DNA from: Opisthocomus hoazin
Lineage: Eukaryota > Chordata > Aves > Opisthocomiformes > Opisthocomidae
Assembly (NCBI RefSeq): GCF_030867145.1
Contig: NC_134427.1
Span: forward strand, 11,121,001-11,185,000
DNA length: 64,000 nt
Direction of reading: 5' to 3'
Shown here: positions 2,210 to 60,800 of the stretch, one piece after another
Numbering within the stretch: the first letter of the stretch is position 1
Layout of the letters: each line of letters begins with the position of its first letter
Program-made: the position numbers and the translations under genes
The notes under the pieces: model-generated
Databases searched by the model: none
Seen by the model: the letters and a program-made list of their open reading frames with translations, nothing else
What the model was told of the DNA's origin: nothing

Positions 2210-5200
2210 CTAGGAGATCATGTACTGGGTGATGGCCTGCAACGCGTACAGCAGCTCTGCCTGCATTCGGGCTTCCAGGATGAGCAGGTTCACGTGGACC
2301 TAAGGGAGAAGCAAGAGAGCTTCAGGCAGCTGCAGTGTGCCGTGGGCAGCAGTGCAAGCAAGCGCCCACCAAGGCTAGTAAGTCTTTTGGCATGGGACAA
2401 AATGCCACCAAGTTTTCCAGCAGAAACAGCTGCCCTTTCCCCCTCCCCTCCCAGTCCTGCAGGTTGTGGCTGCCTCCCAGAGCTGTGAGCTGGGGAGTCC
2501 CCGGCACACTTGGCACCAGCACGCCGGGCTGGCACCAGCACCGTCCCTGCCGCCGACAGCAGCCACTCCAGCAAGTTATAGCTGGACCGAGGGCTCGCCT
2601 GGAGGCACTCACTGCCAGGGTAATGGCCTTGGGAGATCCCCACGCTGCCAGTGGCCGCTGTGCTCATCACACTGCGGGCAGTTCCACACCACGCTAAGCC
2701 CATCTCCTTACAAACAGCCAGTTTCCATTTCCCCCCTCCATCTGCCTCAGACTGGTTTGGTGGCTCAAAGGTTTCCTGTACGCTCCCCAACACCCCCCAG
2801 CCTGCAGCCCCTGCCCACTCCTGGCCCCACTGCAGCTGGTCAGAGCCAGGGGCTGGCTGTCCCACCTTTTCACTGTGCTTGAACTGCTTCCAGAACCTGT
2901 CAAACATTTCTAAATTTGTCTTCTCTGGGTAGCAGGTTACAGTTTTAATGTAAACTTTGAGCATTCGCTCCAGGAGCTGATTCACTTCTGCGTAGTCGTA
3001 GTCATCGTACCTGTGGGGGAGCACAGGGGTGGGTCACGGCCAGCACCGTGTCCCTGCAGAGCACCTCACCCGTGGTCCGCCTGGGACACGGCCCAGCTGC
3101 GGGGCAGGGGGACACACAGCAGCGGCCACCAGGCACTGAAGCCCTGCTCCCAAAGCACCCTGCCCTGCCCACAGAAGCTGAGCATCTCTTTTCTGCCTGG
3201 CCCCAACATCCCAGCAGGCGATTCATCTCCATCTCTTTTCCAAGCCCATCTGCAAGACAGTCCGAGCGCCCTACCCTACTCCTGCCTGGGTCAGCTCGGT
3301 TTTCTCCCCTGGACCACGCGGTTGGGTTCCCTACCTAATGCCAAACATGCAGTGGATGTAGTTCCAGATGCCCCGCTTGAAGACAGAGGGTTCACAGCCC
3401 TGCCGCTTGGCCATAGCGCTGCTCTGCAGACCATCCACCATCCGAAACTTCTCATCCAGGAGATGCCCAATGTCAGAGTAGAGCCGGTTGACCAGCGAGA
3501 AGCCATGGTCTTCCCAGGAGTAATCCTGTTGAGCACAGCAAGAGGCTCTCACAACCACAAAAAGGAGACTGGGACATGTTCCCAGGAAGAAGGGCTGGAG
3601 ACCTCAGGATGCAGCAGAATTCAGTAGGTTTGCTCTGGGGGCGACTGCCACAAACCACAACATCCCTCATCAGGCAGCTTTTGGATGATTTTGACCATTG
3701 CCTCCGTGAAGGCAACACAAAGAAATCGGTAGCCCTTGGGGACAGAAGGTCACCAGTCACCTCCCCCTCCCCAAAGCTAGTGGGGCAGGTCCCCTCTCAG
3801 AGCTGAGCTTCCCCACTCAGGCACTTTGCAAAAGCGGCTGTGCTGGATCGGGGCTGCACGGGCACTCCGGCAACTGTCCACTCCCCACCAGGAGCAGAGC
3901 AGAGAGAAGATGAGCGGAGAGGAGAGGTGGCAGCCTGGGCTGCTGCCTGCCAAGAGAGCAGGAACCTCACCTGGACTCTGAATACCTGCGTCTGATCCTC
4001 ATCACGCCGGGCAAAGTCCTGGTATCCAAAGTCAGGGTCCTGCATGTAGCACGCAAGGTTGGTGGCACCGGTGACTTCCCCGTCAGTATCTGCGAGAGGG
4101 GAGAGCCCCACAGATGGGTCAGAACGATGCTTAGCTGCCCTCTTCCCAGCCGCAGCAGGCGTCAAAAGCCGGGCCTTGCTGCACCACTTTGGGAAGCACC
4201 ATTGTCTTCTTCAGCAGCACCAGCATTCCAGGAGCCCCTCTCCAAACCACACATCACAGAAAACAGAAGGATAGACATGGGGGAGCAACGCCCAGGTGTG
4301 CCATACGAACTGCCACCCTGCACACCTCCGTCCCCTCCCCTCCCTGCCCCTCACCTTCCTCTCGGTCCTGCTGCGGCAGCCTCGTCTCCTCCCTGTCCTC
4401 GGTCTCCACGTGGATCCGCTGCACACGTTCCCGGAGGGAATCCAGCTCCATGCAGGAGTCCAGGGACTGCACAGACACAGGCGTAGAGGTGAGGGCAGCG
4501 ATCCTGGCCACAGTCCCCGTCCCCCCACGGACCCACCCTCGGGGACTCACCCGCTTGCGGTTGATGCGCAGCAGCTCCTGGCTGCAGCCGTTGCTGGCGG
4601 TGGCTTCGCAGAAGCACTGGTTCCCGGGCGACAAGGGCTTCAGAGAGCCTCGGCCCCCTGGCCCCTCATCCTGCTCACAGCCACAGCCAAAGACAAAGCT
4701 GGCGAGCGCGTGGCAGTGCGCCAGGAGGACAACGGCGTGCACCAGCTCTGCCAGTGACCAGCTCCACTCGCTGATTTTCAGCAGCTTCTGCAGGACACGG
4801 ACAGACCAGCAATGTAACGCGGGCAGGCAGGGTGCCAGCACCCTCTGGGGATGCTACTGTCCCCACCACCGCCCTGGTCCCTGGCTGATGGCTCCCCCCC
4901 AATACCTCAATGTGCTCCTTGGTGATGAGCCACGGCCGGTGTGCCAGGATCTTGTTGATCTCATTGAGGTTGCGGAGTTTGGGGGGGATGAAGTCCAGGC
5001 CACGCAGCCACTGAGGATCACCCCCTGCCCGCAGGAACTGCAGCATGTGCAGGTTCACCAGGTACCGGCACTGGTGCCGGGCAGCTGCCTGCAAGAACAG
5101 CACACTGGCATCCCTGCACCACACCAGAGGGACAGGCGTCCCGAGACCCCACATCCACCTCTCACCCAGCCTCCCAGGCATCACGGTTTTGGCCTCTGCA

Positions 5201-8200
5201 GAGAAGCCCGCAGCACAGGCTGTCCAGTGGAGGGAGAGCAGGGAGTCTCGCGGGGCTGAGCAGAGCCCCCCGTCCCCCCTGGCAGCTCCCAGCGGGGCTC
5301 ACCATGATGGCAATGTAGTGCCGGCAGTCGAAGGGCAGCGGGCCGTCCATGTGCATCAGGTAGTGCTGCGTCTTGAGGAAGCTGTCAAGGTACTGCGGGT
5401 GGTAGCCCATCTGCTGGGTCACCGCCTCCAGCCGCCCTCGGCTCGCCAGCACCTTCACGAAGAGGAACTGTGGGCGCTCAGGGTCACTGCCAGACATCTT
5501 CACTACCTGCAGGGAATGTGCTCAGCTTAGCTCTCCCCGGAGCAGCAGCCCACCACAGCCAAAGCCGGGCTCTGCGAGAGGCTGGGATCCCCCCTCCTGG
5601 CGTGGTGCTCCCAGAGGGACACCATCACGTCAGAAGCCACCACAGAGGGCAAGGGCTCGGGTTGGGGAGCTGGGCAGAGCACTGCTCAGTGGGGTCACTG
5701 CTAGCGGGAGGACAGGCTGCAAGACACACAGGTTGGTCTCTGCCTGGTGAGCGGAAGCAAAGAGCAAATAAAGAGTGATTTTTCCTTGCAGTCTTAGAGG
5801 GGAATGCAAGGCCGGAGAAGGAGAAACACGACAGTTGAGAGACCTACCAGAACAGAGCGGCCCCTCAGCCTTACCACCAGACCCCTGCACCGCCAGCACC
5901 AAGCCCTCCTGCCCAGCACCGGGACAGGCTGAGAGCTGTGGAGCCAGCTGAGCTGCTCCTGGGCTCCTGCCCAGCAAGACAAGGGACAAGTGATGTCCTG
6001 GCACCCGCCGCGCAGTTGGGAGCACGTGAAGGGGCTCAGAGGTCTTCCCGCGCCCTGCCCAAGGAGACAGCGTGGGAGCGGGTCCCGCAGCACACAGCTG
6101 CACAGCAACTGGGTGAGGGGGGTCCACACATCCCGGGCAGCACCCGCCCCAGTCCCGCACTGGTGCCCCAGCCGAGCGCAGCCCTGAGCCACACTGCCCG
6201 AGTCCCTCTCGAGAGGGTGGTGGGAGCAGAGGGCAGGAATGTGCAGAAGGCGCCCGGGCAGCTGCTGCGCCCCAACGTCCCTGTCGCCACGTCTCCCACC
6301 CGACAGCGGGATCTGCACCCGCAGCCTGCCGGCACCAAAGCACAGGCACAGCAGGTGCTGGCCCTTGTCACACAGAAAGTCACAGCTCCCGCTCCCAAGC
6401 CCAGGCAGCGCCCTCAGATGCAGAGGGTGTACCTCCCATCCCAGGCTCGAACCAAAATCTCCCCTGGGAGCAACTGAGCCCGCTGACATGGCTGTCATCC
6501 GCCTCCTACCCACCTCTGCGGTGCAGTCACCCAAAGGCTGGTGACCGAGGCACAGCAGCAAACCAGGAGCATATCTGCAAACCAGCCCCTGCCCCACCAC
6601 AACCCTGGGTTGCCACTGTCGGCCAGGACATGCGCACAGCCCTTGGAGCCCCAGCCCAGAACCCCGATGCCCCATGCACCTCGCCTTGCCAGCTACACCG
6701 AGCCTTAACTTCTGCAGCAGCTCAGTGTGCCGCCACGAGCAACCCGGAGGGTCAGGGCAGTGCCAGCAGCAACGACGAAGCTGTGGGGCATGAAGCGGAG
6801 CACCCTGGGGCGAGGGGTGGCAGAGCAGGGCCGAGCCACGCAGCAGCATGGAGCAGTCGCACCCGCACAGGCAGAGCGGGAAGCAGCTCGGACTATTATC
6901 TACTGTCCTGCGCTTCTGGTGAACACACCGTTGCCCAGGTGTCAAGAAATTTACTCGATGCCATTTGGAGCTTCCTCTTTGCTTTTGGCCAAACTGGTCC
7001 AAAAAAACCCCCAAACACCAAGTTAAAATGGGGAGGGATGAAGAGCACCAGCTTCTCTGTCGCACGGGAGAAGGTGCAAACCAGAAGTGCGCTGTGAAAG
7101 TCCTCTGCAAAGTCCCTCTGCTCAGGGAGGTGAGCTGCCCTGAGGACACCCATGGGGCTACAGCTGCCGGTCTTCTTCTGGCGGGCAGAGATGGAGGAGC
7201 CAAGGCCCTTCTGCTCGCCCTGGGGGAAGGTGGTCCCCAGCGAGGCACCCTGCGAGCAGCCCGTGCCTCAGCCTCCAGGGCCACCGGCTCTTCTCGCTCT
7301 GCTTGTCCAGGTGATGATGGAGCAAGCAACCAGGCAGACACGGGCTGGAAGGGGAGGAGGAAGGAAGGAAGGGAAGGATGAAGGCAGGTGCAGGGCAGCT
7401 CCCCACCTCAGCGCTTGTCCCCTGCCCGGGCTCTCCTGCCTGCTCCCCATGGCACCGGCTCAGCCCACGGTCTCTCCTGCTGGCACCACAAGCCGTGTCC
7501 CCCCAGCCTGTCGCACTGCTCCCAGTACCACCTTCCTCACCCCCACCAGCCACAACCCTCCTCCTCCTCCTCCTCCCCTGTGCCTCCTCCAGCCCTGAGC
7601 AGTGGGAGCATCGCCTCCCTCCCCGGGGGGGCTTTTATGTGTCCAAGCCCCCTGAGCCCCAGCAGGGACCCGACCCCGCACCCGCCGCCAGCCTGGCCCC
7701 CTCCCTGCCGGGGCAGCGGGAGGATGTCGGGGCCCCGCCGCTCCTGCCACCGGGAGCAAGCCCGGGCAACGCCGGGAGCGGCGGGAGAGGGGCCGAAGGA
7801 CCTCGCCTCCCCTTCATACCCTCCACCCCCCGACCAGGCAATGCTCCACGGTGCGAGCCCCCAGCCCGCGGGGCTCCATCCCTCCGCCCGGCGAGACCGC
7901 CGCTCCGCCGCTACCGGTGGCTCCGCCGGTGATGCTCGCTGGGGACGCGGCCGCGGCGGGCACCTCCCGCCCGACCCCCCACCCCGGCTCTCCAGGGCAC
8001 GGGGGAAGTGCCGGTGCCCGCGACAGGGTCCCCGCGGCGGAGCCGGGCCCGGTAACCGGTAACCGGGGCCCCATTGTGCGGGCGGCGGCGGCAGCGCCCC
8101 CGGTGCGCGGCGCGGGCAGTGCAGGCGGAGAGAGAAAAACAAGTTTGATTGGCAGTGATGGAGGCACGGCGCTCCCGCACCCCGCACAAAGGGGACGGCG

Positions 8201-8469
8201 ACGGCGCCGCCGCACCGGTAACGGGACCGGGCCGCCCGCCACCGCGCCGGGAGAGAGCGGCCCCGCCGGGCCCGCGCACCGCCGGCGGGCGACGGGAGTG
8301 CCCTGGCCTGCTGGTGCCGCAGCCAGGCCGGGCTGGTGGCGGAGAGCAGGACCGAGCCCGGTGCTCCGGTGCGGGCTACCGGTGCCGGCGGGGCGGGTCC
8401 TACCTGCCCCGGCAGCCGCTGGCACCGGCTTCCTCGGGGGTGCTCCACGCTCTGGGGACACACGATCAT
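2210..8469 (-). CDS. Sestrin family protein, likely a fourth sestrin paralogue
   Basis: Sestrins are cytosolic stress proteins that inhibit GATOR2 and so mTORC1 signalling; their N-terminal half is an AhpD-like alkylhydroperoxidase fold. Nine minus-strand exons join in phase: 8469-8404, 5506-5303, 5088-4906, 4787-4551, 4466-4355, 4089-3971, 3525-3335, 3010-2866, 2299-2210, giving 448 residues plus stop. The AAARHQC block carries the peroxidase-site Cys97, Tyr99 and His104. The C-terminal half has [12 protein letters not shown], the GATOR2-contact DD (373-374) inside RYDDYDY, and a KHSEK block with Trp411 and Glu418. It most resembles SESN1 and SESN3 from memory, but the 335-360 stretch is clearly divergent. 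Exon 1 (22 residues, starting MIV like SESN2) is the weakest part: the usual N-terminal GPSAFIP motif is absent, so an exon may be missing. Paralogue identity is uncertain; family assignment is firm. Confidence 0.93.
5303..5506 (-). CDS. Sestrin second coding exon (alkylhydroperoxidase-fold entry)
   Basis: This exon codes residues 23-90. It starts after a CTGCAG acceptor with VVKMSGSD, aligns with the sestrin segment that begins just after the GPSAFIP motif, and ends in RHYIAIM before a GTGAGC donor. It contains [17 protein letters not shown] and MDGPLP, diagnostic of sestrins. Because homologues have conserved residues directly before this point, the join to the 8404-8469 exon leaves the protein about 20-30 residues shorter at the N terminus than its relatives. 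Confidence 0.9.
5507..8403 (-). other. Sestrin intron 1 (about 2.9 kb)
   Basis: The GTAGGA donor lies just below 8404 and the CTGCAG acceptor just above 5506. I searched the minus strand for an exon encoding the conserved sestrin motif with core FIP and found no convincing one; the nearest look-alikes, near 7035 and 7380, lack proper splice sites and context. The right end merges into the CpG island. Long open frames here (for example 5794-7341 minus) are composition artefacts. Confidence 0.6.
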
Positions 8470-8800
8470 GGTGAGCCCGCGCCGTGCCGTGCCGTGCCGT
8501 GCCGTGCCCGGTACCGGTGACCGACGCCGGTCCCTCCCGGCCCCTCCTGCCCCGTCGCGGCAGCCGGCAGCGCCGAGCCGGGCACCGCAGCAGCCCGAGC
8601 CGCGAGGGGCGTACCCGCCACTCCGCCTCCGCCAATCACCGCTGCGGGCGGGCGGGGCCTCCGGCGCCTCGCCCCCAATCGGCCGCGAAGGGGCGGAAGC
8701 CCGGCGCATCACGTGGGCGGGGTGGGAAAGTTATCCGTCCGTCATGCGCGGAGGTGGGCGGGGCTTGACTTGCCCGCCGCTGGGGGGCGCTGCGGGGCGG
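7600..8800 (-). promoter_or_regulatory. Sestrin CpG-island promoter
   Basis: Very CpG-dense sequence surrounds the first coding exon. Upstream of the minus-strand ATG (8467-8469) lie two CCAAT boxes (plus-strand copies at 8632-8636 and 8675-8679) and a CACGTG E-box at 8710-8715, with several GC boxes. This is a TATA-less housekeeping-type promoter. E-box and CCAAT factors are plausible regulators of a stress gene, but that is inference. Confidence 0.6.
8481..8507. repeat. GCCGT pentanucleotide tandem repeat
   Basis: About five consecutive GCCGT units lie just upstream of the sestrin start codon, inside its presumed 5' UTR or core promoter. A GC-rich short tandem repeat in this position can vary in length and affect transcription or translation. 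Confidence 0.75.
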
Positions 8801-9954
8801 GGCCTGTCCCCATGGTCCCCTCGCTCGCCCCCAGGGACGGCCACAGCCCTTACCCAGCCTCAGCGCCGCCTGCCCCGCTGGCCCGGCCCCGCCGTGCAGC
8901 CGCCCTGTGCCGGGTCCCCTTCGTCCCCTTCCCCTGCCTGGAGGGGCCTGGCACTGGGGCCCGGGGACAACGGGGCAGAAGGAGGTGGTGTCGCGGGGGA
9001 GGCGGGGCAGGGGATGGAGCGGGGCAGTGGGGCACAAGGGTGACGGGGCGTGGGGACAGCAGGCACTGGGACGGGACAGCAAGACGCGAGGGGAACAGGG
9101 CCTGGGGCCAGCGGGCACTGGGGATGGAGCAGCTCCCGCCCTGAGCCGCGTGCCCAGCAGGTTCTGGAGGTCCCGGGGCTGGGAAGGTCCCTGGGCAGGG
9201 CTGTCCCCCTGTCCCCACGGCAGAGGTGGCCTTGGTGAAGGTGGGCACGGCCACGCCAGCCGCCCTGGCTGCCCCTCACCGCTCCTTGGCCTCGCGCGCT
9301 GGAGGGCAGCGTCTCCATGTCAGGTGTCCTCCTCTCCTCCGGCGTCTCCCGGGCGCTGCTCTGCCTCCCGCGCCGGCGCTCGCCCTGCAGCCGTGGGGCC
9401 TCTGCCACCAGGGACGGGACTGGATGCTCCGCGGCACCCCGAGCCCAGCACCGGGCCTCACGCCTGCGCCCACCCGCCCGGCTGCGCCCCATCCCGTCAC
9501 CCGGCCCGGCTGCTCCGGGGTGCTCCAGGAGGGGCGTGAAGGACCAGCACGTCTCCTCCCGCTCAGTCCCCGCGCGACAGCCCCGCGGCCACCCCTGCCC
9601 GCTGCGCCCCGCTGCCCCGAGCGCGGCCGAGACCCTCAGGGACAGGGGCTCCGCTTGCCCGCACACCCACCAGGCGCTCCGAAACCCACCCGGCACACCC
9701 GGTGGGTGCCCCGCGCCCGCAGGGACTCGCTGGCCCTCTCGCTCAGGCGACAACGGCAGCCGGGGGGTGCCCAGCTCGTCACACGGGTGGGTGACGGCTG
9801 GGAAAGCCGGGGCGGGGGCGCGGGCTGCCGGCGGGACCGGCCGGGGACTCCCCACCCCGGCAGCCTGCGCGGCATCCCGCCGGAGCTGGGACCCCCCGCC
9901 GCCCGCACGGAGGGGAACAGCCGGGGGCCGGCGCTGCCCGGGGAGCTCCGGGGC

Positions 9955-10207: not shown

Positions 10208-10397
10208 GCGGCGGGAAGCGGGGGCGCGGGGGGAGCGGCGGGATCCGGGGCGCGGCCGGGCGGGCCCGGTGCCTCTGTGCCGGTGAGGCGGTGGCTGGGC
10301 CCCTCGGCCCCAGTGCTGCCGTGCCTGCAGCCGTTGCACCGCGGGGCTGGCGGGGAGCGGGGCCGGCGGGGGTGACGGTGCGGGGCGCGGGGGTGCG

Positions 10398-13300
10398 TCA
10401 CACCCCCCGGTAGCCGCTCTGGCCGGGGCTGTGCTCGGGGGGCGCGGGCGGCGGCGGGCGGTCGCTGCCCTCCCGGAGCGGCTGGCAGCTCTGCCTGGGC
10501 GGCAGCTCGCTCACGTAGCAGATGTGCTCGCTGTAGTTGGGCTTGAAGCTCTCCACCAGGTCTTTGGGGACTCCGGCCCATTCCTCCGGGGAGAAGAGCA
10601 GGGTGAGAGGAGCCAGCGCCCAGCCCGGCCCCGCGGGGCAGGCTGCCCGCAGCCCCCTTACCTGGAAGTTGCCCTTGTGGGTGATGAAGAGCTCGTCGAA
10701 GTTTTTGCTGGGGTTGGGGATTCGGGGCATGAGGATGACCCACACCCTGCGTGGGAGAGACGTGTTGGAGGAGAAGGGCCCCAGCACTGCTGCCCCCACC
10801 AGCCCCCCGCGCCCACCTTTCCATGCGCACCAGCAGCACGACAAGCACCAGCAAGAGCAGGCAGGAGGCAATGGGGATCAAGACCGTGTGGATCCAGAAC
10901 CAGTGCAGCTGCTCCTCCACCGTGCCTGAGGAGAGCAGTGGGGTGAGCACGCCGTGTGTGACCATGGGAGGTCAGCATCATCCGTGGCAGGGCTCAGCTG
11001 GGAGGGGAGGATGGAGAAGGGGCCCATCCCCAAGCCCTGCCACGCTGTCACCACAAGTGGCAGGTGACCCTGTCCTGTACTGTCCATGCCAGAGCAGCCG
11101 TCCAGGGCTAAGAAACACCTGGCAAAAGTCAGCGGGTCCTGCTGGCAGGGGGTGTTTGGCTTCCAGAAGTGCAAAGGACGTAGGGGCCAGTCCAGATGGG
11201 TCTCGTCCCTACAGCTGCTGCCTCACCTCAGGCCAGTTTTCCACTTGTTTGGCTGTCCCTTGCCTGCTGAGCTCCGCCAGGCCCCAGCCTGTCCTGTCCC
11301 ACTGCAGCCCCCAGGACCTACCCTTGCTGGTGGAGTTGCTGCCCCAGACCACAGGGATGCTCCACTCGCTCCAGAGCTGGGTGCTGCCGCAGTAGCTGTT
11401 GATCTTGCTGCGCACGTAGAAGGTGTAGTACTTCTCATAGTCCACGCTGGGGAAGGAGAAGACATCTCCTTTCACACGCTGCTCCTGCAGAGAGACGTGG
11501 GCCACGGTGTGAGGGCCAGCGCTGCTGTGGAGGGTGCTGCACGGCTCGTCCCCAGGCACAAAACACGGAGGTGCCACATCCGGGGGACTCTCACCGTCCA
11601 GCTGGTGTCCTTGTTGCTCTTGTACTTGACGGCGTGCTCCAGGCACTGGGCTTTGGGGTACGGGGAGGTCCAGGTGAGCTGCAGCTGGTTGCTACTCACG
11701 TTATAGATGGTCAAGTTGACAGGCGCCTCCGGTTTCACTGCAAGACAAAGGTGACGCCTGCCTGGTGAGTGCCGTCCCCGTGCCCCTGTGGCCCTGCTGC
11801 CAGCCAGGACATGATGGGGCAGCCCTGGGGACCCACAGCCCTGCTTCTGCCCCGCAGCAGCCCCACAGAGGAGAGGGGGTGCCCCCCACCACTCCATACC
11901 CAGGTCCTGCAGCTCCATGCGCTTGCTGGGGATCTCCAGGGTCTTGCCGCCAAGGCTGGCATTGACGAGGACGTGGAAAGGCTGGAACTGGATGATCTCG
12001 CTCTGGTTGAAGCGGCAGCCGATGCTGACGCCCTGGTCCTGCAGGTAGTGCTTGCACTCGACAACGGGGGACCTGTTCTCATACCTGTGCTGCAACGGGT
12101 TACTGGGGCTCCCCGAGACCCCGCAGAGCCCAGGCCTCCCCAGGACCCGTCTCCGTGGCACAACCCATCCTGCTTGCCCCGGAGACAGAGTCTCCCCTAT
12201 CCTGGGCTCGGGGACGAGGAGCAGGCTGGTGCTGGGACCCGCAATGCCAGCATTGCAGGAGCCTCCCATGCGGGCACCCACCGCTGGACACCCTGCTGTG
12301 GGGCTGAATATGGGGCAAGGGCACCTACCAGTAGTAGAGGGAGTAGTTGGCTGTGAGCGTCTCTCTGCTCCCCCACGTGCAGGTCATGTACTCCTCGTTG
12401 AAGAGGACACACTCCACCCCTGCAAGTGACAGACACCACTGGGCCTGGCGGTGCTGGGCGGCTGTGCCGGGAACCAGGGGTGCTCCGGGGAGACAGAGCA
12501 CGTGCCAGGGAGCCCTGCACATCCCGTCAGCCTTCCCCTGTGTGAGCCAAACAGGCCCAGCTCTTCCCAGCAGAGCTGCTGTGCAGCCTGCCTGCCCTGC
12601 TGGGCCCCGCCACCCCGTTCACACATGCTGTGTGAGTGATGTCCGGGCTGCAGGCAGCCCCACATCTCCCTCCAAAGGGCCGCCGGCCAGGCTGCTGTCT
12701 CTCCCGCACCTATGCCATCGGCTCCTCTTGCTCCATACGTGCTGTTTCGCCCTGGTTCCTCCATCTGCTCCCCTTAGATCCCCCATGGTCACTGTTTGCA
12801 GCCCCTGGCACCGTGGGATGGGAGAGAAACCCCTCCCTGCCAACCCATTTTGCTTGTCCCTTGAGAAAATTGAGGAATTCCAGGATTTGTGCCTGATGTC
12901 TCTATCCTGGCTAAATTCATCTCGCTGGTCCCCTTTCGGGTGCTTGCAGGTGCTCGTGTGTCCCTGTGTCTGGGTGACGGGGGCTGTGCTGGGCTGTGCT
13001 TGCCACCGCAGCCTCTCCGCCACAGGGCCAGGGGCTGAGCCCCGGCACTTTGCTCTCTGCAGGAAACACCACCAAGCCCTGGGAGGCCAAGCAGCCACTC
13101 CAGGCACCCACGGTGGCTCCTCTGCCCCCTCTTTCCGCTGCGCCATGCCAGCCCTGGTGCTGCCCACGCAGCCAGCGGCCACATCCTGGGCTGGCTGGGG
13201 CCTGGGGGCCACCGGGGCGGTGCTGGTTCCTGCGTCAGTTATTGCGCCGCAGTCTGCTTGGGCTGCTGTGGGCATGGCTCACTGTGGGACAAGCTCCTCC

Positions 13301-15426: not shown

Positions 15427-52589
<37,163 letters not shown>

Positions 52590-56400: not shown

Positions 56401-57343
56401 GCTCCTGCCAGGAGGCCATGCGTGAGGGGAAGGTGTCCCCACGCTGGGAAGGGTCATGCTGGGGAGAAAGGGGAGCGACAGAGGTGCTGGGTCGTGCTCA
56501 CGGGGCTGCTGGGGCCGGCGGGGCTGTGGGCGCTGAGCCGGCTGCCCGGTGCGCGGCAGGGCGGAGGCGGGGATGGGGCATCCCATGCTGGTGCCGGGTG
56601 AATCCTCCCCTGGAGCAGCCGGGCCCTGGGGAGCAGCGGGGCAAGCGGGGGCTGCTGCCCTGGCCCTGAGGGAAGGTGGGGGGCTGGCGGGCGTGGAGGG
56701 CTGCGGGGAGGGCTGGAGGGCGCCCGAGCAGAGGGCCTGGGGCAGGTACGGGCTGCCGTGGGGCACGATTCTGGGTGCCCGGGCTGGTGCGGGGATGCCC
56801 GGGGTCGTTTGCCGGTGCGGTGCGGGGGCCCCCAGGGCTTGCGGGTGCCCCGGCCGGTGCGCCGGGGGTTACCGCACCCTGGGCCGGGAGTGGGGCAGAG
56901 CCGGAGCCGTGCGCAGGGGCCGTGGGGGGTACCGGGGTGCGGGTGCGGCCAGCGCCGGTACGCAGCGGGCGCGGCCCCGGCCTGCGCGGGGCCCGGCGGC
57001 TGCGGCACCCCTCGGGGCGGTGCCCGGGGCGGTGCAGGCGCCGGGGCGTGCGGTACCGGACACGGCCGGCGCAGCGGCGGGGTCGTGGGACGCCCGATCA
57101 GTGCGGCACCGGTACCAGTACCGGGCGACGACGCCGAGGGCGGCGGCAGCGAAGGGGTGCTGCGGTGCGGCCCCTCCCCCGCCCGCCCCCGCCGTGCCCG
57201 CGCCGCGCGCTCTCGGTGCGCGGTCGGGCCGGACTGAGCGGAGTGCGGGCGCGGAGCAGCCGCTGCCGCCACCGGCATGGCCCAGCCGCGCCGCCGGCCC
57301 CCACGGTGAGTGCGGCCCGGCCCGGCCCGGCGTGGCTCTCGCT

Positions 57344-57357
57344 GGGGGGGGGGGGGG
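57344..57357. repeat. G14 homopolymer
   Basis: Fourteen consecutive G residues lie within the CpG island about 40 bases after the putative splice donor. It could form a G-quadruplex, and it is also a common place for assembly or base-calling length errors. Confidence 0.8.
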
Positions 57358-57666
57358 CGGCCGGGCGGGACTCGGCCGGCTCCACGGCGGCCGTGGGGCT
57401 CCCGAGGCGGGGGTGGCCGCGGGCCGGTGCCGGTGCCGCTCCCGGTGCCGGGGTGGGGCGGCCGGGGCCGGGCCGGGCAGCGGGGCGGGGCGGGGGTTCA
57501 CGGGTGGGGCCGAGCTCGGCGGCGGGTAACGGCGGGGGTTAACGGGGCCGGATGGGCGGCCGCGGCGAGCCGGCGGGTTGCCATGGCGACGCGCTGAAAG
57601 GGGGATTGTGCGCCCGCCTCAGCTGCGCGGCCCCCGCCCGCCCCTCGGCCCGGGGCCACCCGCCCG

Positions 57667-57690
57667 GTTCGGCTCGGCTCGGCTCGGCGC
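57667..57690. repeat. GGCTC pentanucleotide repeat
   Basis: About four GGCTC-like units sit in the right part of the CpG island. A simple GC-rich repeat with no coding role that I can support. Confidence 0.6.
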
Positions 57691-57800
57691 GGGGAGCGGC
57701 GGCTCGGGCGCTCCCGCCCCAGGGACCGGGATCCTCCCCGGGGCTGGGGGTGCTGGGAGGGCGGGGGCAGAAGGCTGCTGGCGGGAGCATCCCCAGGCCA

Positions 57801-60800
57801 AGGGCAGGCAGGAGATCCCCTCGGCTCGGTTCGTCTGGCAGAGCGCAGGGAACGCCATCAGTCCTTGGGCTCCTGGAGCAAACGGGCATTCCCGCTCCCG
57901 GGCAGGGGGCCTGGGGGAGGCAGGCTGGGGGGCAAACGGGCTCTGCTGTGCTGGCCATGCTCGCCCCTGAGCAGGGAGGTGGGTCGGGCCCGTTGCGCAG
58001 CAGTTGCCGGTGGCACGGCCGACGTCCGCGGTGGCTGGGGTCAGTGCTGTTCGCCTGAGCTGGGCTCCGCCGCGCTCCCAGAGCAGGGCAGGCCTGGTGG
58101 GTGATGGCTGGCGCCGGGGTCCGTCCGTGTCTGGCGCTGTTGGCAGCGAGCGAGAGGAGAAGTGACGAAGGACATGAGGCCTGCCCATCTCTTTCTGGGC
58201 CACACTGCCAAATGGTGACAGGTCCTGGTGCCTCTGCTGGCTGCCCTTCCCAAGGCCATGGACCTCCCTCAGGGAAGTGGCTCTGGCATGAGATGCCCAC
58301 GACGCTGGGGTTTTCTTTCCATCCTTTGACGGTGCCTCGTCCACTGCTGCTGCCGGCTCAGCCCCAGGCGACAGCGGAGGGGCTGGAGGTGCTGGGCACA
58401 CGTGGGTGCAGCGGGAGAGCCGGCAGAGCCAGCACCCCACCAGCCCCTGTGCTGGCTGTGCTTCCTGTCAGCCTGGTGGGACCTTCCTTCCTCTGGAAAC
58501 CGGGGTGCTCTGTGGAATTGGGGGCATCTGGCAGCCGGATAAGGGGTGGCAGAGAGGGAGATGTGTGTTGCCAGGGCGGGGGTTACTCTTCACTCTGGCA
58601 AATGCACGTGCCACCTTTTCTCCCTGCTCTGCACCAGAGCACCTGTGCCAACCCCTGGCGCAGGGCTGGGCTACCTGAGGTCCCCGTCAGAGCAGACCTC
58701 CTCCCGCTCTGCACGCTGCAGGTGGCCACCACCAGCCTGGTGTCTGCAGAATGGTTAAAGGCTGACATTTAGAGGTCACACTTTTAGCATTGTGCATGTG
58801 TTTGCTTCATTTGCATTTGCAGTTAGCCCAGCTCGAGGCTTTGCCACTCGCATGTGCAGTTGCCATGGTTACGTGTGCAGTCGGGATGTGGAGTTTGGTT
58901 GGACACCTGCAAACGTGCAGCTCTCAACCTCCAGAGCACCAGGGCATGAGCGAAAGCTGCTGAGATGCAGGGCAGCCCTTGGACCGGGGCGGGTGGGCCC
59001 TGCGCAGCAATGCGCGGAGGAAGTGGAGTTGCAGTGCCCAAAGGCCTGGAGTGAAGGTGCTCAAGAGCAGCGCAGTGAGGGTAGGCAGAACCTGGGAGTC
59101 GCAAGCGGAGCTGCTGTGCAGGCTGGCAGTGCCTTGCCCACAGGCAGGGGCCTGCCGAGGCTTCAGAAAGCAGCATGAGAGTTGGCAGAGTGCTGTGCCG
59201 AGGCTCCAGCTGTGGCGGCTGCATCTTTCCTGGCTCTCTGTGGAGTCTGCTCTGGCTGCTCAGGTCCGACACAGACAGGGACCCCCTCCAGGTGCTTTTT
59301 GACCAGGATCACACCAAGTCCATGAGCGACAGCAAGGAGATAGTGACTGCCAAAACCCTGTGGCAGATCCACGTTGGCCTTGTCTTTATGTCAAGGGAGG
59401 AGGAGTTTTACGACAGCAGGTGTGGAAGGGACATCAAGGTGACTGAGACTCTAAGCTCCATCTAAACCATTCCAGCATCAACTCAGCCAGCTCCTAAACT
59501 TTCCTTATCACAGTGGTTCTGCTGCCTCCCAAGCAGTTTGCTGCTGTCTTCCCATATCCTTCCTGCCAGGAGCTACTTCTACGCAGCAGGCGGGGGAGAA
59601 GGGAAGCCCTCTTGGCTGTCCAGGAACAACTGTCGCCTTGGACAGACCAGTGTGGGTTGTCCATGCTGCCCTGGTGGCAGCTGGAGGAATCCAGTAATTG
59701 GAGGAGGGTGGAAGGACGGTGGGGATGAAGACATGAAGCGTGTGTCTGGGTGTAAGCTGTGGAGAAGGCATGGAGGAACCTCTGAAATCTCATAGCAGAG
59801 CATGGAGGGGATGGGTATCTGCCATCCTCAGGCTGTGCATGAAGGGCAGAGGGATGGGGCAGGGACAGCTTGGCTCTGTCCTTAGGGCTTTCAGTGCCAC
59901 TGGGATGGGACAGTTATTTGCTCCCCATGGGATCCCAGACAGAGATTCTGCCCCTGATGGTCTGTGGTTATTGGCTGCCAGTAGACGTGCTCTGTCAGTA
60001 GAGCATTTCAGAAGATGCTTCTTAATCAGGGTCTGGCATTCGTACCTGCATCCACAGCCACAGCCAGGGACATGCGTGGGTCTTGGGTCAGCAGGGAGGG
60101 GAGGTGGTCACAACCAACTGGCAGGGGCACATCAGCAGGAGGAGGCAGGGTGGATCCTGGCACTGGGGTGCTCGAGAAGAGCAGGGTTTGAGGGCTGTGG
60201 CAGAGTTGAGTGGTGCTGTATGATGGACTAAATGCTCTGGTGGTCTCCTAATGTGATGCTCCCCGGAGCTGGGGGCAGGGAGCAGGCTGTGACCAGCGCT
60301 GTGTGCTGTTGGCCTCAGCAGGATTCTGCAATGGGTGTGAGGGGAATGAATAAATGGTCCTGCAACAGCCAGAGCTGGCGATTTGAACCCACATCATTCA
60401 GACTTTGGAGCGAGTCTGACTGAGGGGAAACAGGGATGAAGTGGGAGTTGTGGAAAGACGCGGAGGCTTCTGGCTGCAGCTGCTGGGTTCTGTCTGGTGC
60501 GTGTAGCTCCTGGAAGTTTTCCCTGGTTATGACGATACATGCTGTTTGTTTGGAGCCTTGTCTGGGCTCAGTAGCGATATGGTATTGCAGTCCGTGATGA
60601 AACCTGAGTTCCTGCTTAGTCTTGCAGTTGTGTGGGGAACTCTGCCCTTGCAATATACTCCTTTTGCCATGTTGTCTGTCTGGCAGCGGGGCAGGCACGT
60701 GGCATGTGGGGGATGGGGTACGTCTGTGAACAAGACTGTGCCGGGGAGTGCTGTCTGGGCTGAAACTGCCTTGGCAAGGAGCTCAGGGGGTTGTTGGTAA

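What the first reader, a model, noticed from the sequence alone, without database searches (positions are those of the whole stretch)
2210..8469. A sestrin gene next to IL2RG and MED12: likely a fourth vertebrate sestrin absent from mammals
Seen: nine in-phase exons encode a sestrin directly downstream of IL2RG. Known: mammals have SESN1 beside FOXO3, SESN2 on the same arm as FOXO6, and SESN3; none lies at the IL2RG-MED12 locus, where FOXO4 sits. Inference: the FOXO-sestrin pairing suggests a whole-genome-duplication copy (the FOXO4-linked sestrin) kept in this lineage and lost in mammals.
Basis: partly seen in the sequence, partly recalled or inferred. Interest (0 to 1): 0.75.

Follow-up and report, generated by a model that had tools for sequence, protein, structure and literature searches.

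The report
Fourth vertebrate sestrin, missing in mammals
The gene is a real fourth vertebrate sestrin, a stress and nutrient regulator of cell growth, found from cartilaginous fishes to birds but not seen in mammals, and it has lost the loop that lets other sestrins sense the amino acid leucine.

Summary
Confirmed. Window 2210-8469 (minus strand) holds an intact nine-exon, 448-residue sestrin gene beside IL2RG, with a FOXO gene (FOXO4 by position) 15 kb to its left. The same genome has three more sestrin loci: SESN1, SESN2, SESN3. A 50-row tree puts the window protein in a separate clade (20 rows, 100/100) that includes elephant fish and ray; a late amniote copy of SESN1, 2 or 3 is rejected. 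FOXO matches lie at four places, one on each sestrin contig, and the published FoxO order (3,6)(1,4) matches the best sestrin tree (1,2)(3,4). This fits the early-vertebrate genome duplications, though sequence alone does not settle which sestrin is the sister.

New here: the leucine-lid residues of human SESN2 are replaced. The TY signature occurs in 0 of 111 SESN4 rows, while the GATOR2-binding motifs are mostly kept. I infer a leucine-blind GATOR2/mTORC1 inhibitor; this is untested.

UniRef already names some members 'Sestrin 4', but two sestrin reviews count three vertebrate sestrins, and my searches found no paper on a fourth. NCBI labels it mostly sestrin-3(-like).

The parts
8404..8469 (-). 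exon 1 of SESN4 (ATG at 8469; 22 aa), inside a CpG-rich stretch about 7800-8800
5303..5506 (-). exon 2 (start of the SESN-A domain)
4906..5088 (-). exon 3; holds AAARHQC.Y....H, the C125/Y127/H132 residues of the antioxidant site
4551..4787 (-). exon 4; holds WSLAEL, a GATOR2-binding motif
   Evidence: motif role from PMC11429811
4355..4466 (-). exon 5 (linker, SESN-B)
3971..4089 (-). exon 6 (448-aa form; a nearer donor, exon end 3986, would give 443 aa)
   Evidence: orthologue P0001
3335..3525 (-). exon 7; leucine-lid region changed to [23 protein letters not shown]
2866..3010 (-). exon 8; holds DDYDY (GATOR2) and HSEK of HSEKVH (base of the leucine pocket)
2210..2299 (-). exon 9, last coding exon, stop codon at 2210-2212
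10260..12456 (-). IL2RG (cytokine receptor common gamma chain), neighbour upstream of SESN4 on the same strand; limits are those of tblastn matches
26137..27844 (+). two stretches of MED12 with the Med12-LCEWAV domain (part of a longer gene)

Best explanation
The gene is SESN4, the fourth sestrin made in the early-vertebrate genome duplications, linked to FOXO4 as SESN1, 2 and 3 are linked to FOXO3, 6 and 1. Shown: intact gene, separate ancient clade, FOXO linkage, kept GATOR2-binding and (in the bony vertebrates aligned) antioxidant residues, lost leucine-lid residues. Inferred: the protein binds GATOR2 through WSLAEL and DDYDY like other sestrins but is not released by leucine. It would therefore restrain mTORC1 in proportion to how much of it is made, not to leucine supply. 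It resembles a natural version of the 'apo-locked' Sestrin2 mutant used in the laboratory.
For: Gene and family. Four sestrin loci in the genome, three of them modelled as SESN1/2/3. SESN4 clade 100/100 with elephant fish and ray; late amniote duplications rejected. FOXO-TAD at four places, each on the contig of one sestrin (15 kb from SESN4, 183 kb from SESN1, 2.6 Mb from SESN2, 17.4 Mb from SESN3). FAM76 copies near SESN2 and SESN3. FoxO order (3,6)(1,4): PMC2746812 passage; the four FOXO exons here give the split of the contigs that this predicts, by 40 log-likelihood units. Lid: TY signature in 0 of 111 SESN4 rows, at least 107 of which hold the region, but in 199 of 200 other rows assigned to SESN1-3. 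Position 390 is K in 104 of 111 rows. H86, D406 and D407 are kept in 20 of 20 aligned SESN4 rows, W444 and E451 in 19 of 20. WSLAEL (or close forms) in 106 of 111, DDYDY in 104 of 111. T374 and T386 mutations abolish leucine binding and R390 coordinates its carboxyl group (PMC11429811).
Against: No binding or expression test. SESN3 keeps the lid yet is reported to bind leucine only very weakly (PMC11429811), so lid letters alone do not predict behaviour. W444 and E451 at the pocket base are kept, so some ligand might still bind. The AlphaFold model (mean pLDDT 61.9) is too weak to judge the pocket. Sister order is unresolved: SESN4 outside SESN1-3 (p-AU 0.466), with SESN1 (0.188) or with SESN2 (0.257) are not rejected, and the own-genome sestrin quartet is nearly even (8, 5 and 5 sites).
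Confidence: 0.7

Rival explanations
1. It is a recent lineage-specific copy of SESN3 (as NCBI's name 'sestrin-3-like' suggests) or of another sestrin.
For: Best tree joins SESN4 with SESN3 (90/85); NCBI names it sestrin-3, sestrin-3-like or sestrin-1-like.
Against: Holding amniote SESN4 with amniote SESN3 costs 407 log-likelihood units, p-AU 5e-5; with SESN1 418 units; with SESN2 348 units. SESN3 is present separately on contig C1.
Confidence: 0.02
2. SESN4 has a re-modelled pocket and senses another small molecule through the new lid while still controlling GATOR2.
For: The lid is replaced by a conserved segment, AK[RQ][QR]GC, in 94 of 111 SESN4 rows and in 13 of 13 aligned rows outside ray-finned fishes; of 203 other rows one has it, P0273, itself a SESN4 by best match. 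The pocket base W444/E451 is kept in 19 of 20 aligned rows and R390 is mostly K, a like charge.
Against: The seven aligned ray-finned rows lack the segment and have deletions there, so it cannot be essential everywhere. Of the 17 rows without it, nine are ray-finned, six are bird or lizard rows with a variant or partly missing segment and two lack the region. No ligand is known.
Confidence: 0.2
3. The lid loss reflects relaxed constraint: SESN4 is a decaying sestrin, and its loss in mammals and frogs is the end of that course.
For: Longest stem of the four clades (0.37); no mammal or frog named among the SESN4 rows listed; C125 lost in the two aligned cartilaginous rows, and ray-finned lids shortened.
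Against: Window gene intact; 97% identity to the stork protein, 84% alligator, 75% salamander; DDYDY in 104 of 111 rows; conserved new lid segment in 13 of 13 aligned rows outside ray-finned fishes.
Confidence: 0.12
4. SESN4 no longer acts on mTORC1 and serves only as an antioxidant or AMPK partner.
For: C125/Y127/H132 are kept in the 18 aligned bony-vertebrate rows.
Against: GATOR2 motifs are kept in most rows, and the two aligned cartilaginous rows kept D406/D407 but lost C125.
Confidence: 0.08

Closest known systems
SESN3 (vertebrate sestrin 3)
   Same: Sestrin domain and shared splice positions; best-tree sister; 57% identity in the own genome, about the same as to SESN1 and SESN2; NCBI often uses its name for this gene.
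   Different: SESN3 keeps T374/Y375/T386/R390 and an extra exon with GPSAFIPE; separate locus on contig C1, with a FOXO gene at 17.4 Mb.
SESN1 and SESN2, the leucine-responsive sestrins
   Same: WSLAEL and DDYDY GATOR2 motifs, C125/Y127/H132, W444/E451.
   Different: Aligned SESN1 and SESN2 rows keep the leucine lid that SESN4 lost; a FOXO gene lies 183 kb from SESN1 and 2.6 Mb from SESN2.
Apo-locked human Sestrin2 mutant E451Q/R390A/W444E (PMC12136191, passages)
   Same: A sestrin altered in the leucine pocket, made to be held in the leucine-free state; position 390 is changed in both.
   Different: Man-made; alters E451 and W444, which SESN4 mostly keeps, while SESN4 alters the lid (T374, Y375, T377 in most, T386).
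'Sestrin 4' entries in UniRef (coelacanth P0067, elephant fish P0100, Paramormyrops P0111)
   Same: Same clade as the window gene: name databases already recognise it in fishes.
   Different: Bird, turtle, crocodile and salamander rows of the same clade carry other names; no paper on it was found in the searches listed.

Membership tests
Sestrin family (PF04636) | PA26/sestrin domain over the whole protein | tested here: met
   609 bits against a cut-off of 29.4, residues 22-441
Sestrin family (PF04636) | GATOR2-binding motifs WSLAEL and DDYDY | tested here: met
   window exons 4 and 8; D406/D407 in 20 of 20 aligned SESN4 rows
Sestrin family (PF04636) | Antioxidant site C125/Y127/H132 | tested here: met
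   kept in the window; the two cartilaginous SESN4 rows have S at 125
Leucine-sensing sestrin (SESN1/SESN2 type) | Lid residues T374, Y375, T377, T386 and R390 | tested here: not met
   window has Q, S, A, P, K; TY signature in 0 of 111 SESN4 rows
Leucine-sensing sestrin (SESN1/SESN2 type) | Leucine binding and leucine-driven release from GATOR2 | not testable with these tools
   needs protein
Ohnologue from the early-vertebrate genome duplications | Orthologues in cartilaginous and bony vertebrates forming one clade | tested here: met
   20 rows, 100/100
Ohnologue from the early-vertebrate genome duplications | Linked families duplicated in parallel | tested here: met
   four FOXO places, one per sestrin contig; FAM76 at SESN2 and SESN3; the CEP57 query did not complete
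Ohnologue from the early-vertebrate genome duplications | Symmetrical tree matching the linked family | tested here: inconclusive
   best tree (1,2)(3,4) at 91/88 and 90/85 matches FoxO (3,6)(1,4), but other orders are not rejected
Recent copy of SESN3 | Grouping with amniote SESN3 | tested here: not met
   p-AU 5e-5

The most novel reading that the evidence does not exclude
SESN4 is a nutrient sensor of a different specificity: the same GATOR2-binding body with a new conserved lid (AK[RQ][QR]GC) over the old pocket, so that birds, reptiles, salamanders, lobe-finned and cartilaginous fishes carry an mTORC1 input that mammals have lost.
Probability: 0.18. Interest if true: 0.9.

Novelty: new variant of a known kind. 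Interest (0 to 1): 0.68.

Why it matters
Two sestrin reviews state that vertebrates have three sestrins (PMC11429811, abstract, passages and sections; PMC12071529, passages). A fourth, without the leucine lid, would mean that many jawed vertebrates have an mTORC1 restraint that mouse and human work cannot reveal. It also gives a natural test of which sestrin residues sense leucine and which bind GATOR2. Practically, the chicken protein that NCBI calls sestrin-3 (P0007) is SESN4 in the tree, so published bird 'SESN3' results may mix two genes. In the 1006-sequence alignment of PMC11429811, T374, T386 and R390 are conserved at 92.6, 92.4 and 92.4%, while E451 is at 99.5% and three DDYDY residues at 100%; SESN4 entries filed as SESN3 could explain that matching shortfall (my inference, not tested).

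Tried and rejected
Late duplication of SESN1, SESN2 or SESN3 in amniotes: rejected. Pseudogene: no stop or broken splice site. Mis-assembly: IL2RG and this sestrin are also neighbours in Apteryx and Hirundo gene models. p53 and FOXO sites: no FOXO core and no full p53 site in window 5507-9500 by simple consensus; p53 half-sites 4 against 2.1 expected. A rough forkhead motif search found no FOXO in the window or in the 10 kb on either side; the FOXO-TAD match lies a little further left. A gene between that FOXO and SESN4: I recognised none by eye among the ORFs of L013. AlphaFold of the stork orthologue P0001: sestrin fold (best PDB match human Sestrin2 5dj4, TM 0.80 on the target) but confidence too low to judge the pocket. 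Paper searches aimed at a fourth sestrin or sestrin evolution: searches gave 0 papers; one search gave 3 (turkey 'sestrin-3-like', a superscript read as 'sestrin4', trout 'sestrin-1-like'; passages); one search gave 8 (passages of two, the other six seen in the listing only). One search gave 144 papers with 'sestrin' and 'phylogenetic', 40 listed; of those I saw passages of two, neither about a fourth sestrin, so a mention in the rest is not excluded.

Full report
OBSERVATION. The minus strand of window 8469-2210 carries nine exons with AG/GT borders and consistent phases, an ATG and a stop codon. It is a sestrin (PF04636, E 6.7e-183; human Sestrin-2 in the PDB, E about 5e-138). IL2RG lies directly upstream on the same strand and MED12 beyond it on the other strand.

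FOUR SESTRINS IN ONE GENOME. The window's assembly (1.48 Gb, 415 contigs) has 29 sestrin-exon matches, all at four loci: C14 (the window), C2:79.50 Mb, C17:4.86 Mb and C1:15.39 Mb. Exon models of the last three are SESN1, SESN2 and SESN3 by similarity and by tree. Their downstream exons end at the same places as those of the window gene, but they carry an added exon encoding GPS(R/A)FIP; their first exons were not modelled. Of the 111 SESN4 rows only the ray Mobula (P0103) shows such a stretch; 140 of the 203 other rows do.

PHYLOGENY. One search found 1465 homologues and listed the best 120. By best match 111 of these 120 are SESN4, the other nine SESN3 (8) or SESN2 (1). Named sources of the SESN4 rows are birds, crocodilians, turtles, squamates, salamanders, coelacanth, lungfish, paddlefish, gar, bowfin, bichir, some teleosts, elephant fish and a ray. 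None is named as a mammal or frog; the mammal and frog rows in the list (P0120, P0115, P0118) are SESN3. At least one SESN4 row has no source name (P0084), and proteins under 0.55 of the query's length are not seen by this search. A tree of 50 rows (the four own proteins and 46 chosen from the 314 found), 475 columns, gives SESN4 100/100, SESN1 100/100, SESN2 100/99, and SESN3 plus the ray row P0112 100/98. Holding amniote SESN4 with amniote SESN3, SESN1 or SESN2 is rejected (p-AU 5e-5, 6e-5, 1e-4). The best order is (SESN1,SESN2),(SESN3,SESN4) at 91/88 and 90/85. The AU test does not reject SESN4 outside the other three (0.466), or beside SESN1 (0.188) or SESN2 (0.257), and the quartet of the bird's own four sestrins has 8, 5 and 5 supporting sites for the three splits. 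So the fourth clade is firm and its sister is not.

FOXO LINKAGE. The FOXO-TAD domain matches at four places in the genome (nine candidates scored; the tool calls its counts lower bounds), each on a sestrin contig: 15 kb from SESN4, 183 kb from SESN1, 2.6 Mb from SESN2 and 17.4 Mb from SESN3. The length-weighted chance that four loci fall one on each of these contigs is 6e-5; this figure is generous to the hypothesis, because the SESN1-FOXO3 and SESN2-FOXO6 links were in the finding beforehand; for SESN3 on the FOXO1 contig alone it is 0.106. I name the four FOXOs by these links and by the published order, not by a tree with named FOXO rows. FoxO evolved as (3,6),(1,4) (PMC2746812, passages); the four FOXO exons here give the matching split C2+C17 against C1+C14, -3255.0 against -3295.3 and -3295.9. 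FAM76 copies lie within 30 kb of SESN2 and about 0.18 Mb from SESN3. Sestrins and FOXOs thus look duplicated together.

FUNCTIONAL RESIDUES. On human SESN2 numbering 20 of 20 SESN4 rows keep H86, Y127, H132, D406 and D407; W444 and E451 in 19 of 20 (Paramormyrops differs); S190 in 19 of 20; C125 in 18 of 20 (S in both cartilaginous rows). None of the 20 has T374, Y375 or T386; T377 is still present in coelacanth and in both cartilaginous rows; R390 is kept only in Paramormyrops. The SESN1, SESN2, SESN3, insect, crustacean, mollusc, tunicate and Capsaspora rows aligned there all keep T374, Y375, T386 and R390, but not all keep T377. Over the wider set, the TY signature is in 0 of 111 SESN4 rows, at least 107 of which hold the region, and in 199 of 200 rows assigned to SESN1-3, the exception being P0314, a retro-element protein with a sestrin piece. 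In one search, 114 of the 314 rows fell to SESN4; besides the 111 these are P0273, a duck SESN4, and P0299 and P0306, two unnamed rows with TY that I regard as distant sequences wrongly assigned. DDYDY is exact in 104 of 111 and WSLAEL or a close form in 106 of 111. A new lid segment, AK[RQ][QR]GC, is in 94 of 111 SESN4 rows. Of the 17 without it nine are ray-finned, six are bird or lizard rows with a variant or partly missing segment, and two lack the region.

MECHANISM. According to PMC11429811 (abstract, passages, section 5 part 1 and section 9 read) T374 and T386 mutants lose leucine binding, R390 holds its carboxyl group, Y375 seals the lid against H86, and WSLAEL and DDYDY bind GATOR2. 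From this I infer that SESN4 binds GATOR2 and is not released by leucine. Its output would then be set by expression. PMC12136191 (passages) used a leucine-pocket mutant, E451Q/R390A/W444E, as apo-locked Sestrin2. Against a simple reading: SESN3 keeps the lid but is reported to bind leucine very weakly, and SESN4 keeps the pocket base. I put the identity as a fourth ancient sestrin at about 0.97 and the leucine-blind GATOR2 inhibitor at about 0.6.

WHAT IS KNOWN. UniRef names three SESN4 rows 'Sestrin 4'. PMC11429811 and PMC12071529 state that vertebrates have three sestrins. Searches for 'sestrin 4', 'sesn4', 'fourth sestrin', 'sestrin-4' and like forms, 'sestrin' with 'ohnolog', and 'four sestrin' and like forms gave no paper on it among those seen; only open-licence papers are held. 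That mammalian FOXO4, IL2RG and MED12 are neighbours on Xq13 without a sestrin is recalled, not tested.

Noticed in passing
P0007: The chicken protein that NCBI and UniRef call sestrin-3 is SESN4 in the tree, so bird 'SESN3' labels can mean two genes.
   Followed up: yes
PMC12491267: Turkey 'sestrin-3-like' LOC104912103 is listed among temperature-responsive genes of breast muscle, in the same table as SESN1; it may be SESN4 (not checked).
   Followed up: no
P0100, P0103: Both aligned cartilaginous SESN4 proteins have serine in place of the catalytic C125, while the aligned bony-vertebrate rows keep it.
   Followed up: partly
P0087, P0095, P0096, P0108, P0109, P0111, P0116: The aligned ray-finned SESN4 proteins have deletions in the old leucine lid and lack the new lid segment.
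   Followed up: partly
P0108, P0109: The bonefish Albula has two SESN4 copies that are not direct sisters in the tree, perhaps from the teleost genome duplication.
   Followed up: no
P0012, P0055: Gene models of Hirundo and Apteryx fuse IL2RG with SESN4, probably annotation errors caused by their closeness.
   Followed up: yes
window 56450-57860: Long overlapping open frames on both strands with GC-rich codons, perhaps a CpG-island promoter of the next gene; not identified.
   Followed up: no
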